From a virus: a stretch of DNA of 26,118 bases. This document shows, in pieces, positions 3,766-8,444 of the stretch. The notes beneath the pieces are model-generated. The model made no database searches and was not told where the DNA came from. It saw only the letters and a list, made by a program, of their open reading frames with translations. Where the stretch lies: positions 1-26,118 of the IMG/VR virus record IMGVR_UViG_3300000116_000140, one strand, 5' to 3'. Position numbers and translations under genes: made by a program. Numbering within the stretch: the first letter of the stretch is position 1; the number at the start of each line of letters is the position of its first letter.

Positions 3766-4917
3766 TTAATAAGTTTTAGTTTCGTCGTCACTTGGACCTT
3801 TTTGAAATTTTTGTATATATTCTTTTAAATTCATTTCTTTTCCATCTTTTTGAAATAACTTTAAATTAGGGTCAATCTTTATATCTTCATAATGTTCTCC
3901 ATCATTTCCATTTTGGCCTATTATATTCATTCTTTCTTCAGCTTTTTCCCAATCTTTAATTTTTTCAATTTTATCAAGATTATCCATAAATTCTTTATTA
4001 GTCTTTATTTCCTCAGAATCTTTAACTATAATATCTTCTACTCTTTCCCCATATAAGTTTTCTTTATATTTTCTTTTTGGGTAAGCTTTATCAAAAGCAA
4101 AATTTGCAGCAACTACTAGAGATATTGCTAATGGATCAAATACAAAAATTATAATAAGTAGTAGCACATTTATAATTTTATCCATGGGATAACCCGTCAA
4201 ACTCGATAGATATTGCAGTGGTCCTAACTCACCAGCAACCTCGGTGTTATTGTCAAGTTCCAATACTTGTAATTGAAATTTTTGTAAACTATCTGATGCT
4301 ACTGTTCGTTTAGATTGCGCCAATTTACGATTTTCCTCTTCAATATTAATACGATTCTGCGCCATTCTAAGCTCAGTTGTGGAGATTGTTTGTCTAAAGC
4401 CCCCAGATACCGAGGTATCTCGTACTTGGATGGTCGAAGCTTTTGCATTAGATAAAGTACTAATATTACTAGATATTCTTTCAATTTCCGTATCATATCG
4501 TGTTACATCATTTTGGTAAAAGTCAATTTTTTGTTGGATAAAACCTTTTTGATTTTCTACTGCTGATAGTTTAGAGTATGTTTCTTGATATGCAGCACTT
4601 AAAAAGCCATAAATACCCATACTAGTAATTAATACTAATATTATAGTAGCAATAGATAAATAAGTTCGTAAAGTTTTATTAATTGTATCCCAATATTGGT
4701 ATAATAATGAGGCTGTTACTAATTTAGCAAATTCCAATGAACCTGCCATTATAATAACCTCTAGAGAAGCTCCAGCAAATAATTTGCTAAGACCACTTAC
4801 TGAATAGAAAGCGGCTGAAGTTGAGACTGATAAAGCCGAAAAGGCTATTAGGAATGGAAACATTCCTTGTTTTATTTTACCTAGTACCCCCATTGTATTG
4901 TGTTGCGTGTCCTTCAT
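3766..4917 (-). CDS. Multi-TM membrane protein with central coiled coil
   Basis: A 383-aa protein with hydrophobic segments at about 18-42, 48-72 and 88-112, a long charged/Gln-rich helical region (about 112-225) that looks like a coiled coil, and one more strong TM at about 246-272 (NVLLLIIIFVFDPLAISLVV). A 110-residue acidic cytoplasmic-type tail follows. The order TM-TM-TM-coil-TM resembles phage and bacterial integral membrane coiled-coil proteins such as DUF4407-like families, but I cannot assign one firmly. It overlaps the thermonuclease gene by 41 bases (start at 4917, or less likely Met9 at 4893), implying translational coupling. An envelope role (lysis timing, superinfection exclusion or membrane anchoring) is inference from topology and neighbours. 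Confidence 0.65.
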   Translation of the reverse strand: MKDTQHNTMGVLGKIKQGMFPFLIAFSALSVSTSAAFYSVSGLSKLFAGASLEVIIMAGSLEFAKLVTASLLYQYWDTINKTLRTYLSIATIILVLITSMGIYGFLSAAYQETYSKLSAVENQKGFIQQKIDFYQNDVTRYDTEIERISSNISTLSNAKASTIQVRDTSVSGGFRQTISTTELRMAQNRINIEEENRKLAQSKRTVASDSLQKFQLQVLELDNNTEVAGELGPLQYLSSLTGYPMDKIINVLLLIIIFVFDPLAISLVVAANFAFDKAYPKRKYKENLYGERVEDIIVKDSEEIKTNKEFMDNLDKIEKIKDWEKAEERMNIIGQNGNDGEHYEDIKIDPNLKLFQKDGKEMNLKEYIQKFQKGPSDDETKTY

Positions 4918-5264: not shown

Positions 5265-5873
5265 TTATGCTATGTCTTTACTTTCTAGGAGGGTATAAGT
5301 AAATGAGTTACCCCAAATTTCTCTTGCTGTTTGGCATATATCTAAAAATTCATACCAATCATCGTTATCCGCTATAACTTGACACCCAGCTGACCATTTA
5401 TCTATTCTAGTAGAAGTACCACCTGATCTGCTTGTTGCTCTATGAATGTTAATTCCAAATATACCTTCCTGTACATTTTCTTCTAATAAGTCATAGTTAT
5501 TATCTCTATTATTGTCTCGATATACTTTAACTGGTTTTTGTTGTCCTAAAGCTAAATATTTACCAGCATGTAATCTTAATTTATGAGAACCTCTATATTG
5601 ACCAGGTTTAAGTATTGCTACTCCATCTTCATTCATTACATTTTCTACCCAATGTGTTCCAGGGTCTGTAGTAGCTTTAAAACAATGGAATTGCCACTCA
5701 CCTTCTACTTTATATGATATTGTAACGCAGTCATCAAATGAATTAGTAACTCTATTTTTAGTTTCTGAATTTCTAATTCCTATAATATTAACATCATAAT
5801 CACCTCCAGTAAAGTACTTATAGTCTTTACATTTCATTGCTTCTTCAATTTGTTCTCTTGTATAACAATTCAT
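5265..5873 (-). CDS. L,D-transpeptidase-fold (YkuD-like) peptidoglycan enzyme, candidate endolysin
   Basis: A 202-aa protein whose C-terminal half carries the catalytic pattern of YkuD-type L,D-transpeptidases: FGINIHRA (H144) followed 17 residues later by KWSAGCQVI, with S161-x-G163-C164 as the nucleophile motif. A Gly/Ser-rich insertion lies between them. The N-terminal 100 residues (GEWQFHCFKATTDPG and so on) likely complete the beta-rich fold. There is no signal peptide, so export would need a holin; a two-TM holin-like gene lies one base upstream. That pairing suggests a lysis enzyme that cuts or remodels peptide cross-links, though a non-lytic wall-modifying role is possible. Canonical amidase or muramidase motifs are absent. 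Confidence 0.6.
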   Translation of the reverse strand: MNCYTREQIEEAMKCKDYKYFTGGDYDVNIIGIRNSETKNRVTNSFDDCVTISYKVEGEWQFHCFKATTDPGTHWVENVMNEDGVAILKPGQYRGSHKLRLHAGKYLALGQQKPVKVYRDNNRDNNYDLLEENVQEGIFGINIHRATSRSGGTSTRIDKWSAGCQVIADNDDWYEFLDICQTAREIWGNSFTYTLLESKDIA

Positions 5874-5874
5874 A

Positions 5875-6129
5875 TTATTTTCTTTTCTTAAAGATATTAC
5901 CTAATTCAGCAATACCAAAACTACCCAGAGTAATAAATAAGAACGAGTCGTAAATAAATTCGTTAATAACCAAATCTTTTCCAAAGTAACCAGTTACTAA
6001 ATCTACAATTGCAAATATAGTCATAATAGCAAAGGAAGCAAAACCTACTACGGTTTTTTCATTTATGTCATTGCTGTCTTTAAAAATATCTCTAAATGCC
6101 ATCCATTTTTGTTTTAATTTATTCAACAT
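5875..6129 (-). CDS. Holin-like two-TM membrane protein
   Basis: An 84-aa protein with a basic N-terminus (MLNKLKQKWM), two hydrophobic segments at about 28-48 and 58-77, and a basic tail (FKKRK). Size, topology and charge fit a class II-type holin. It ends one base before the start of the L,D-transpeptidase-fold gene. The family is not named with certainty; the holin role rests on topology and context. Confidence 0.5.
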   Translation of the reverse strand: MLNKLKQKWMAFRDIFKDSNDINEKTVVGFASFAIMTIFAIVDLVTGYFGKDLVINEFIYDSFLFITLGSFGIAELGNIFKKRK

Positions 6130-6154: not shown

Positions 6155-6171
6155 TTTTATTATAAATATTA
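6155..6171. repeat. 17-bp AT-rich repeat, copy 1
   Basis: The + strand sequence TTTTATTATAAATATTA occurs exactly here and at 24516-24532. Both copies sit in short intergenic gaps upstream of a minus-strand gene and next to the stop codon of the gene before. On the minus strand the core reads ATATTTATAAT, which contains TATAAT, a possible -10 box. Because it is all A/T, chance recurrence is not excluded. Confidence 0.3.
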
Positions 6172-6585
6172 GAATTGACCTGCTTTTTTAAGTTCGTCAA
6201 TATCTGATTGTATTTCTTCTAAAGTAACAGGTAATAGTAAGTCTAAACCTGCTTTATATTTGTACTCTATAACTCCCTCTTTTATAACAAACAATGTAGG
6301 GGCCATTCTAATTCTATATTTTTTCTTTGCTAATGGAGCTTGAGCAATATCTACACGATAATAAGAAACATTTTTTAGTTCTTTCCAAGATGCAAAGCAA
6401 TTTTTTTCATTAAATTTAGCCCAATATTCTATTACTATTATTTCTGATTCACTATCATCAAATGCTCCTTTAGTATTTACTACTTCTTCGTAATTTGAGT
6501 CATCTAACCAGTATTTATCAGGAACTTCTGATTGGCTATATAAAGTTGACCCAAATAGAAGAAACAAAAATAGTAATTTTTTCAT
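6169..6585 (-). CDS. Secreted thioredoxin-fold protein lacking CXXC
   Basis: A 138-aa protein with a clear signal peptide (KK, then LLFLFLLFG, likely cleavage near YSQ at 16-18). The mature part has a thioredoxin-like layout: strand IIVIEYWAKFN (49-59), then KNCFASW (61-67) where thioredoxins carry WCxxC, and RMAPTLFVIKEG (93-104) with the cis-Pro motif at P96. Only one cysteine (C63) remains at the active-site position, so it cannot be a normal dithiol oxidoreductase. It may be a monothiol or purely structural periplasmic protein. It sits between the one-TM coil gene and the holin-like gene. Its role, perhaps in envelope or lysis functions, is unknown. Confidence 0.6.
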   Translation of the reverse strand: MKKLLFLFLLFGSTLYSQSEVPDKYWLDDSNYEEVVNTKGAFDDSESEIIVIEYWAKFNEKNCFASWKELKNVSYYRVDIAQAPLAKKKYRIRMAPTLFVIKEGVIEYKYKAGLDLLLPVTLEEIQSDIDELKKAGQF

Positions 6586-6587
6586 TA

Positions 6588-6872
6588 TTATTTATTTTTG
6601 GATAGTTCGTATAAACGTTCTTCCATTTTCTCCAATTTTTGAAGAATAGCATCTACGTCTTCTTGAGTATCCATTATTGTCTGGCGAACCAACTCATCTT
6701 TTAAGTCGTATTCTACTCTTTCTATAACAGGTTCAGGCATTTCCATTGCTCGCGCAATATCTGCTTTTAAAGTAAACCACATTGTTGATAGAGATACTAC
6801 AAACCCAACTATCATTCCTATTGTTTTTAAATCCAGAATAACTTTAGTATTCTCTCCTAATTGTTTTGCCAT
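6588..6872 (-). CDS. One-TM protein with C-terminal coiled coil
   Basis: A 94-aa protein with one TM helix at about 15-35 (LKTIGMIVGFVVSLSTMWF) followed by an acidic, heptad-like helical region (about 52-92, ending KLEKMEERLYELSKNK). This is the general shape of an inner-membrane spanin or a membrane-anchored coiled coil. It lies 2-3 bases from both neighbours, between the outer-membrane barrel gene and the secreted thioredoxin-fold gene. It would fit an inner-membrane partner for these envelope proteins, but no family is recognised. Confidence 0.6.
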   Translation of the reverse strand: MAKQLGENTKVILDLKTIGMIVGFVVSLSTMWFTLKADIARAMEMPEPVIERVEYDLKDELVRQTIMDTQEDVDAILQKLEKMEERLYELSKNK

Positions 6873-6875
6873 TTT

Positions 6876-8069
6876 TTATTTAAATGTATAATTTAACCCA
6901 AATGTTGTTTGGTATAACTTACTATCCCACATTTGGGAATATTCACCCTCTATAAATATGCCAAGATTTTTTCCTAATTTAGCTCCAAGTGAAGCTCCAA
7001 AAGAATAATCATGCCATTGTTCTAATTTTGCATCTTGTATTAATCCTCCTTTACCCCAATTATTTCTGTTTAAATAACTAAATTCTTTTTCTCCCGCGAT
7101 ATATTGGTGAGCAGGTAATATATAATTAGCATAGGCATGCAACCAAAAATTTCTTTTATAATGGTAAAAATCTACTCCTACTATAGGAGCAATTTCCATC
7201 CAAGGGTCTAATAAATCCCAAGCTTCCCCATTGAATCTATTCATTAAACTAGGCATTACTTTTTCTCTAAATGATAAATCTGAATGAGCTACTTGAACAC
7301 CATCTGCGTCTACCCAACACCAGTCTTGGGTTACGTTCCCATTTTCATCGGTTGATGTGTAAAATATATCATCATACCCGTACATAAACCCTAATGTATA
7401 CCATGGGTTTAAAGGGTTTCCATTTTCATCTAACTCATTTAACCATATTTCAGATGGATTATAACCATAAGCTCGTTCATGTCCCCTTAATATAGCACCT
7501 GCTGAAAAAGAGAATTTTTTTCCTATTGGTAGTCTAGCTCTAAGTTCTGCTGAATTGTAGTTTAAATTAATTTTACCTACTTCTCTAGCTTGTACTTTTG
7601 CGATATGGTACTTACCTGTATGTTTTAAGAAAAAATTATAGTTAGTAAAGTTTTCACCTCTCCATCTTTCTTTTTCAAAGTGGAGTTGATATTCTAATCC
7701 TTGGACTGCTGATGTTGGGGCCGAAAATACTAACTGTTCTTCTGTACCATCATAATAATTTTTAGGTTTTCTTTCATAGTCAAATCTAGCTAATTTTCTA
7801 ATACCAAACCCATATCTATAATCAAAAGGAAATACTTCAGTATTATTAACTACATCAGGAATAGAATATAGACTTCCATCAGGATTTGTCCTTAAAAAGT
7901 AAGTAGGCTCAGCTGCTTCAATTGAATTAGATATATCCCCGGCGGCGTATATTGTTCCATATTTTAAAAAGTCTTTGTATATGGATTTGAATAAATTAGA
8001 TTTCTCTTCTTGACTAAAAGAAGGTATAATATAAAGGAATATAAATACTAATGTTAATATTTTTTTCAT
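6876..8069 (-). CDS. Outer-membrane beta-barrel protein
   Basis: A 397-aa protein with a signal peptide (MKKILTLVFIFLYIIPSFSQ, cleavage near residue 19). The remainder is rich in alternating aromatic/polar strands (for example INLNYNSAELRARL, KFSFSAGAILRG, FWLHAYANYIL, NLGIFIEGEYSQMW) and ends in TTFGLNYTFK, the aromatic-ended last strand typical of proteins inserted by the BAM machinery. It is the first gene after the terminator at 8145-8160. Phage-encoded outer-membrane barrels are uncommon. It could alter the host surface (superinfection exclusion), aid lysis, or be a host-derived protein. It has no carboxypeptidase-plug or TonB-box motif of SusC-type receptors. Confidence 0.65.
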   Translation of the reverse strand: MKKILTLVFIFLYIIPSFSQEEKSNLFKSIYKDFLKYGTIYAAGDISNSIEAAEPTYFLRTNPDGSLYSIPDVVNNTEVFPFDYRYGFGIRKLARFDYERKPKNYYDGTEEQLVFSAPTSAVQGLEYQLHFEKERWRGENFTNYNFFLKHTGKYHIAKVQAREVGKINLNYNSAELRARLPIGKKFSFSAGAILRGHERAYGYNPSEIWLNELDENGNPLNPWYTLGFMYGYDDIFYTSTDENGNVTQDWCWVDADGVQVAHSDLSFREKVMPSLMNRFNGEAWDLLDPWMEIAPIVGVDFYHYKRNFWLHAYANYILPAHQYIAGEKEFSYLNRNNWGKGGLIQDAKLEQWHDYSFGASLGAKLGKNLGIFIEGEYSQMWDSKLYQTTFGLNYTFK

Positions 8070-8144
8070 ATAGTTTAAATTTAAAGTTAAAGAAATAACT
8101 ATATTAGGAATAACATTATATTTGATAATAAATATAAAAAAAGA

Positions 8145-8160
8145 GGGTGCTAATGCACCC
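8145..8160 (-). terminator. Intrinsic terminator ending the replication/nucleotide operon
   Basis: A perfect GGGTGC - TAAT/ATTA - GCACCC stem-loop flanked by A-runs and T-runs on both sides, so the stem can extend and the hairpin can work on either strand. On the minus strand it is followed by TCTTTTTTT. It lies 33 bases downstream of the 83-aa membrane gene and upstream of the outer-membrane barrel gene, separating two transcription units. Confidence 0.85.
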
Positions 8161-8192
8161 TTTTTTAATTTTTTTTAAATTTTTATAATAAA

Positions 8193-8444
8193 TTAGATTT
8201 TATTTTTTAAACTTATAATCCAATTTTTAAATAAATCCCAATTTCGCGTAGCAAATACACCAAATGCGACACCTGCATAGATTTTAAAACCAAAAGACCA
8301 AAGTAATAATCCTGCGATTAATCCTAAAATCCCTTCAATTCCATTTCCTACTATCCAACCCTTTACAGCATTGAATGTTTTCTTAAACCAACTAATTTTT
8401 ACTGGTTTTTTTTCTACTTTTTTTGCTTTTGCTTTTCTAGCCAT
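8193..8444 (-). CDS. Small basic membrane protein (83 aa)
   Basis: An 83-aa protein with a very basic N-terminus (MARKAKAKKVEKKPVK) and one or two hydrophobic segments at about 37-62 (IEGILGLIAGLLLWSFGFKIYAG), ending basic (SLKNKI). It is the last gene before the strong terminator and follows nrdA by a 54-base gap. The charge pattern fits a positive-inside inner-membrane protein or holin-like peptide. No family is recognised. Confidence 0.6.
   Translation of the reverse strand: MARKAKAKKVEKKPVKISWFKKTFNAVKGWIVGNGIEGILGLIAGLLLWSFGFKIYAGVAFGVFATRNWDLFKNWIISLKNKI

What the first reader, a model, noticed from the sequence alone, without database searches (positions are those of the whole stretch)
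6169..8069. Secreted cassette: outer-membrane barrel, inner-membrane coil and periplasmic thioredoxin-fold protein
Three consecutive genes encode products predicted for the outer membrane, inner membrane and periplasm, with Bacteroidota-style signal peptides, directly upstream of the holin-like and wall-enzyme genes. A phage-encoded barrel is unusual. The set could form an envelope-spanning complex for lysis, receptor masking or superinfection exclusion.
Basis: partly seen in the sequence, partly recalled or inferred. Interest (0 to 1): 0.6.

Follow-up and report, generated by a model that had tools for sequence, protein, structure and literature searches.

The report
Three-part envelope-spanning phage lysis module
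Marine phages of flavobacteria carry three always-linked genes, for an outer-membrane barrel, a periplasmic adaptor and an inner-membrane anchor, usually beside the genes that burst the cell; together they look like a new way of breaking the bacterial outer membrane, an open question for these phages.

Summary
Genes on the minus strand encode a signal-peptide β-barrel (6876-8069), a single-TM coiled-coil protein (6588-6872) and a secreted thioredoxin-fold protein (6169-6585), 2-3 nt apart, followed by a two-TM holin-like gene and a wall-enzyme gene. All three localisations are predicted from sequence or models. The thioredoxin fold lacks CxxC (0 of 167 relatives), so it is probably an adaptor, not a redox enzyme. 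The genes behave as one unit: searches with coil or thioredoxin found the barrel in essentially every locus not cut by a contig end (149 of 162 complete). About 128 distinct barrels (49-100% identity) occur in T4-like phages, Elemovirus-like podophages and a third group, in two gene orders. Where 3 kb downstream is held, 122 of 175 loci have an endolysin-like gene within 4 kb. In a podophage relative without the triad, the slot before the endolysin instead holds a holin-like gene and one protein with an inner-membrane TM and C-terminal outer-membrane-type strands. No lipoprotein ORF (o- or u-spanin) was seen in the window. Best reading: a trans-envelope, spanin-like outer-membrane disruption complex with a barrel as outer-membrane part. 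Function is untested; superinfection exclusion and transport remain possible.

The parts
6876..8069 (-). Outer-membrane beta-barrel, 397 aa, signal peptide then Q+1; about 12 predicted strands, N-terminal helix, large conserved predicted extracellular loops (about 48-82, 198-289, 318-353)
   Evidence: no Pfam or PHROG family
6588..6872 (-). Inner-membrane single-TM protein (TM about residues 17-35) with periplasmic amphipathic or coiled-coil C-terminus, 94 aa
   Evidence: weak PHROG matches phrog_6664 and phrog_1009
6169..6585 (-). Secreted thioredoxin-fold protein, 138 aa, no CxxC but cis-Pro motif kept
5875..6129 (-). Holin-like 84-aa protein with two hydrophobic segments, linked to the triad in many relatives
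5265..5873 (-). Wall-enzyme-like protein, 202 aa, with SAGC motif suggesting a YkuD-like fold; homologues in crAss-like and Bacteroides phages
   Evidence: motif read by eye
8144..8161 (-). Intrinsic-terminator-like hairpin between the gene at 8193-8444 and the barrel; separates the nrd side from the triad side

Best explanation
The three proteins form one trans-envelope complex that acts at the end of infection to break or open the outer membrane, doing the job of spanins with different parts. Inferred steps: (1) the 94-aa protein anchors in the inner membrane and projects a short helical rod into the periplasm; (2) the redox-dead thioredoxin-fold protein binds as a periplasmic adaptor; (3) the 12-stranded barrel is the outer-membrane anchor; (4) the intact peptidoglycan keeps the parts apart or inactive until holin and endolysin have acted; (5) the linked complex then pulls the membranes together or opens the outer membrane, releasing virions. 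Shown here: gene linkage, two gene orders, predicted folds, loss of CxxC, lysis-gene context, exchange of the slot with a one-protein IM-OM bridge. Inferred: complex formation, timing and outer-membrane disruption.
For: Near-obligate co-occurrence of one component per envelope layer: 149 of 162 loci from independent coil and trx searches hold all three; all others but L082 are cut by a contig end on the missing side. A further barrel-led set gave 71 of 74, the 3 others also cut. The unit survives a change of gene order, BCT 178 and CTB 20 loci, and of phage backbone: gp23-bearing T4-like records, portal phrog_6547 podophages. Tight spacing. Endolysin-like genes of several unrelated kinds lie beside it: Amidase_2, Peptidase_M15_3, DUF5675, glucosaminidase, YkuD-like. 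In MW202828, a relative of the triad phage G007 (portal 72% identical), the position between the tail-fibre genes and the M15 endolysin holds instead a 150-aa holin-like gene and a 207-aa protein with an N-terminal TM and C-terminal amphipathic strands. Elemovirus and Maribacter phage Panino carry the same architecture near their terminase genes. No lipoprotein ORF in the window and none near 131 of 185 triad loci. A coil paralogue has homologues in pelagiphages, in HTVC027P two genes from a peptidase M15. Kongari et al. 2018 (PMC6139136) list flavobacterial phages as spanin-less and suggest that 'an OMP could act as an o-spanin'.
Against: No functional data. About a quarter of loci with enough flank (45 of 175) show no lysis gene of the modelled families within 4 kb, and some of these (L007, L045, L106, L222) have no evident wall enzyme next door. 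A 94-aa rod seems short for a whole periplasm, so the adaptor would have to add reach. The replacing single protein in relatives is itself uncharacterised, and the three examples are too divergent to prove they are one family (19-27% identity). Late genes of any function can sit near lysis genes. The barrel model is of middling confidence.
Confidence: 0.5

Rival explanations
1. Superinfection exclusion or receptor masking: the barrel, held by the inner-membrane coil and the adaptor, blocks entry of further phages at the outer membrane or in the periplasm.
For: Phage OM and periplasmic proteins are known to exclude phages, and such genes can sit near lysis genes (own knowledge). The barrel has large predicted extracellular loops.
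Against: The predicted loops are about as conserved as the strands (major-residue frequency 0.62-0.75 for the long loops, 0.64-0.91 for strands), unlike a part in an arms race. Present across whole lineages rather than patchily, and it needs two partners.
Confidence: 0.17
2. Transport channel for the infected cell: the triad imports nutrients or exports a phage product across the outer membrane.
For: Nearest PDB folds are diffusion channels and translocators such as CymA, OmpG, NanC and FapF.
Against: These matches reflect the general barrel fold (all about 4-11% identity). No transporter partner, ligand-binding protein or exported substrate gene is conserved beside it. Lysis-gene linkage is unexplained.
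Confidence: 0.12
3. Lysis-timing control: the complex senses the envelope state and holds back or triggers holin or endolysin, as T4 RI does by another route.
For: Same lysis neighbourhood; a periplasmic soluble part and a membrane-anchored part.
Against: A conserved 12-strand barrel is more than a sensor needs. Linked endolysins and holins are of unrelated kinds, so a specific holin partner is unlikely.
Confidence: 0.13
4. Virion or DNA-entry component made with signal peptides.
For: Located in late-type regions near tail-fibre genes in podophages.
Against: Two of the three carry conserved cleavable signal peptides, which send them out of the cytoplasm where virions assemble.
Confidence: 0.05

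Closest known systems
Two-component spanins (lambda Rz/Rz1, T7 gp18.5/gp18.7)
   Same: Inner-membrane single-TM coiled-coil protein plus an outer-membrane partner, encoded together beside holin and endolysin genes
   Different: Outer-membrane part is a beta-barrel, not a small lipoprotein; a third, thioredoxin-fold periplasmic protein is always present; no sequence match
Unimolecular spanins (T1 gp11); the only spanin type reported for Bacteroidetes phages (PMC12596118)
   Same: One system bridging both membranes in the lysis region
   Different: Split into three proteins, no lipobox, barrel as OM anchor
One-protein IM-OM bridge of elemo phages, MW202828 and Panino (described here; unnamed)
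   Same: Comparable late region, in MW202828 the same syntenic slot beside the M15 endolysin; IM TM joined to OM-type strands
   Different: Single 181-207 aa protein with about four strands (12 if a trimer, speculative); no thioredoxin-fold part
Phage-encoded OM barrels (lambda Lom, Lc/NmpC-type porins, cyanophage OMP-like)
   Same: Phage-encoded outer-membrane barrel
   Different: Those are stand-alone morons as far as I know; this one is bound to two partners and a lysis context

Membership tests
Two-component spanins | i-spanin: N-terminal TM (N-in, C-out) with periplasmic coiled coil | tested here: met
   Hydropathy peak 1.89 starting at residue 11, net positive N-terminus, heptad a/d 75% hydrophobic; topology predicted, not measured
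Two-component spanins | o-spanin: small outer-membrane lipoprotein with lipobox, adjacent or embedded | tested here: not met
   No lipoprotein-like ORF in any frame of the window; 131 of 185 triad loci have none within -1/+3 kb (own regular-expression rule)
Two-component spanins | Linkage to holin and endolysin | tested here: met
   Holin-like and wall-enzyme genes directly downstream in the window; 130 of 175 relatives with a lysis gene within 4 kb
Two-component spanins | Required for outer-membrane disruption at lysis | not testable with these tools
   Needs expression or deletion experiments
Unimolecular spanins | Single protein with N-terminal lipobox and C-terminal TM | tested here: not met
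   Three proteins, no lipobox
Thioredoxin superfamily (fold) | Thioredoxin fold with cis-Pro | tested here: met
   Z 14.3 to D. radiodurans Trx2; Pfam 23.7 bits against cut-off 23.5; Pro motif in 165 of 167
Thioredoxin oxidoreductases | CxxC active site | tested here: not met
   0 of 167 distinct homologues
Bacterial OM beta-barrel (fold) | Signal peptide, even-stranded closed barrel with short periplasmic turns | tested here: met
   Model with about 12 strands, best PDB matches all OM barrels; model confidence moderate
Phage barrel morons (Lom, porins) | Sequence membership in a named family | tested here: inconclusive
   No Pfam or PHROG hit; BFVD match A0A516LKJ4, 25% identity, unnamed

The most novel reading that the evidence does not exclude
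A new class of phage lysis machinery: a three-protein trans-envelope complex in which an integral outer-membrane beta-barrel replaces the lipoprotein o-spanin and a redox-dead thioredoxin fold couples it to an inner-membrane rod; widespread in uncultured marine flavobacterial phages and exchanged in place with a one-protein IM-OM bridge.
Probability: 0.4. Interest if true: 0.82.

Novelty: new variant of a known kind. Interest (0 to 1): 0.64.

Why it matters
How spanin-less phages of diderm bacteria break the outer membrane is a stated open question (PMC6139136), and flavobacterial phages are among those with few recognised spanins (PMC8776804 lists a spanin for only some genera). This module gives a concrete three-gene candidate, with an OM protein in the o-spanin role that was suggested there but, as far as I know, not demonstrated. 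It would also add a function to hundreds of nameless genes of uncultured marine phages.

Tried and rejected
Redox enzyme (thiol oxidoreductase) for the third gene: rejected, no CxxC in 167 homologues. Host-derived gene captured once: the only matches in 84,980 species genomes are four contigs in MAGs, which look phage-like or carry no clear host genes, so no cellular home was found. Isolated-phage homologues: none with barrel, coil or trx in INPHARED, also with a divergent barrel, so no cultured phage with this triad. T4-type late promoter upstream of the barrel: not enriched (8 of 222 have TATAAATA). Catalytic barrels: OMPLA appears among the fold matches but I saw no HxSN-type motif by eye; left open. 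Search for the one-protein bridge in triad genomes found none, but that three-row model had no positive control, so it shows nothing. Complex prediction was not possible with the tools. A PDB sequence search with the barrel profile gave nothing meaningful.

Full report
What is there. On the minus strand of the window, read in transcription order, lie a 397-aa protein (8069-6876), a 94-aa protein (6872-6588) and a 138-aa protein (6585-6169), separated by 3 and 2 nt, then an 84-aa two-TM protein (6129-5875) and a 202-aa wall-enzyme-like protein (5873-5265). A terminator-like hairpin at 8161-8144 divides this set from the upstream small membrane-protein and nrd genes. The 202-aa protein matches PHROG families 3000 and 33083, the latter annotated endolysin, and has 40-46% identical homologues in crAss-like, Bacteroides and Pseudoalteromonas phages; its SAGC motif suggests a YkuD-like fold (read by eye). 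The window record is 28.9 kb. Close relatives with the same gene neighbourhood carry a T4-type major capsid protein, so I take the phage to be T4-like.

The three proteins. The barrel has a signal peptide followed by an invariant Gln, no Pfam or PHROG family and a predicted OM-barrel fold of moderate confidence (mean pLDDT 69). The leading PDB matches are OM barrels (CymA Z 12.0, 4.6 A, 205 residues; OmpG; Tsx; NanC; autotransporter barrels); the spread over unrelated barrels shows fold, not function. Reading the model with both ends in the periplasm gives 12 strands with mostly short periplasmic turns and three long outer loops (about 48-82, 198-289, 318-353). These loops are about as conserved as the strands. 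The coil protein has one hydrophobic segment after a net-positive N-terminus and a heptad-patterned tail. The third protein is a confident thioredoxin fold (pLDDT 85; Z 14.3, 1.9 A, 101 residues) with the cis-proline kept but no CxxC in any of 167 distinct homologues. In the second gene-order group (L060-L080) it is a 107-110 aa form.

A conserved unit. A scan of IMG/VR with the barrel gave 92 relatives, 80 kept; with profiles built on them, nearly all uncut loci also hold coil and trx. To avoid asking only barrel-positive loci, I searched separately with coil and with trx. Of 162 loci (including four from species genomes), 149 hold all three; all others except L082 end within the missing side. 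A second barrel scan gave 71 of 74, the other three cut. Across these sets there are 223 near-full-length barrels, about 128 of them under 95% identical, 49-100% identical to the window's. Loci from different scans overlap, so the counts are not all independent. Two orders exist: barrel-coil-trx (178 loci) and coil-trx-barrel (20). Coil and trx are within 30 nt in 177 of 178 loci of the first type. Backbones differ: gp23 in three of the ten records tested; in the second order a podophage portal, 45-72% identical to that of Flavobacterium elemo phages, Maribacter phage Panino and MW202828. These relatives point to Flavobacteriia as hosts. A third group has two very large proteins upstream and reversed nrd genes downstream.

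Lysis neighbourhood. In 175 loci with at least 3 kb downstream, 122 have a wall enzyme of the Amidase_2, Peptidase_M15_3 or YkuD-like families within 4 kb and 130 have one of the modelled lysis genes. Of the remaining 45, some have a DUF5675 wall enzyme (L172) or a glucosaminidase (L012); others, such as L007, L045, L106 and L222, have none nearby. Different enzymes beside the same triad argue that the triad is tied to the lysis step rather than to one enzyme. A paralogue of the coil close to a DUF5675 gene in L031 has homologues in pelagiphages, in HTVC027P (gp15) two genes from a peptidase M15.

Exchange in place. MW202828 shares with the triad podophage L060/G007 the order GroEL, GroES, small genes, tail fibre, lysis slot, M15 endolysin, tail gene. 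In the slot, L060 has coil-trx-barrel and a 76-aa TM protein; MW202828 has a 150-aa holin-like protein and a 207-aa protein with a strong N-terminal TM and about four amphipathic strands at its end (strands read by eye). Elemo phage gp34 (181 aa) and a Panino protein (200 aa) have the same layout near their terminase genes. No family library names them. So one region of related phages holds either a one-protein or a three-protein bridge from the inner to the outer membrane. This is positional evidence for like function; it is not proof.

Mechanism and rivals. The favoured reading is outer-membrane disruption after holin and endolysin have acted, with the barrel in the o-spanin role. Support from the literature: Kongari et al. 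found no spanin in 91 of 677 phages, list Bacteroides B124-14 and Croceibacter P2559S/P2559Y among them, and propose that 'an OMP could act as an o-spanin' (PMC6139136). A 2025 survey reports only unimolecular spanins in Bacteroidetes phages (PMC12596118). Bartlau et al. annotate a unimolecular spanin in only some flavophages (PMC8776804). The window has no lipoprotein ORF by my rule. Superinfection exclusion, transport and lysis-timing control stay possible; no experiment separates them here. Because the lipoprotein criterion fails, I do not file the triad as a spanin, only as working like one.

Limits. Localisation and topology are predictions; the lipoprotein scan uses a simple rule; endolysin models were built from these loci; several records are fragments; and no complex could be modelled.

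Noticed in passing
L009:12537-12962, L018:10137-10565 and relatives: A second, small (about 141 aa) signal-peptide protein resembling an 8-stranded OM barrel lies near the triad in some T4-like relatives.
   Followed up: no
L003:9206-9778, L056:9245-9796, L144:5059-5616; L106:5282-5992: The gap between barrel and coil often holds an extra OM-type lipoprotein gene (183-190 aa family, or an unrelated 237-aa one); an optional fourth component or a hotspot for surface genes.
   Followed up: partly
L255:4391-5014 (-), L256:13594-14139 (+), L257:3701-4303 (-): Unnamed one-protein IM-TM plus four-strand OM-type protein in MW202828, elemo phages and Panino; candidate new type of unimolecular bridge, possibly trimeric.
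   Followed up: partly
L031:10611-10937, L172:7062-7382: Coil paralogue near a DUF5675 wall enzyme, related to pelagiphage genes near a peptidase M15.
   Followed up: partly
window 3766-4917 (-): 383-aa membrane and coiled-coil protein conserved downstream in T4-like relatives, unknown function (weak PHROG spanin match, E 0.054).
   Followed up: no
L045:2131-7896 and L082:54-7832: Very large proteins (1,900-2,600 aa) directly upstream of the barrel in the third phage group and in MAG contigs.
   Followed up: no
L082-L085: Phage-like contigs carrying this barrel are binned into Woesearchaeota, Flavobacteriaceae and Maricaulis MAGs in the species-genome collection; likely binning contamination.
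   Followed up: partly
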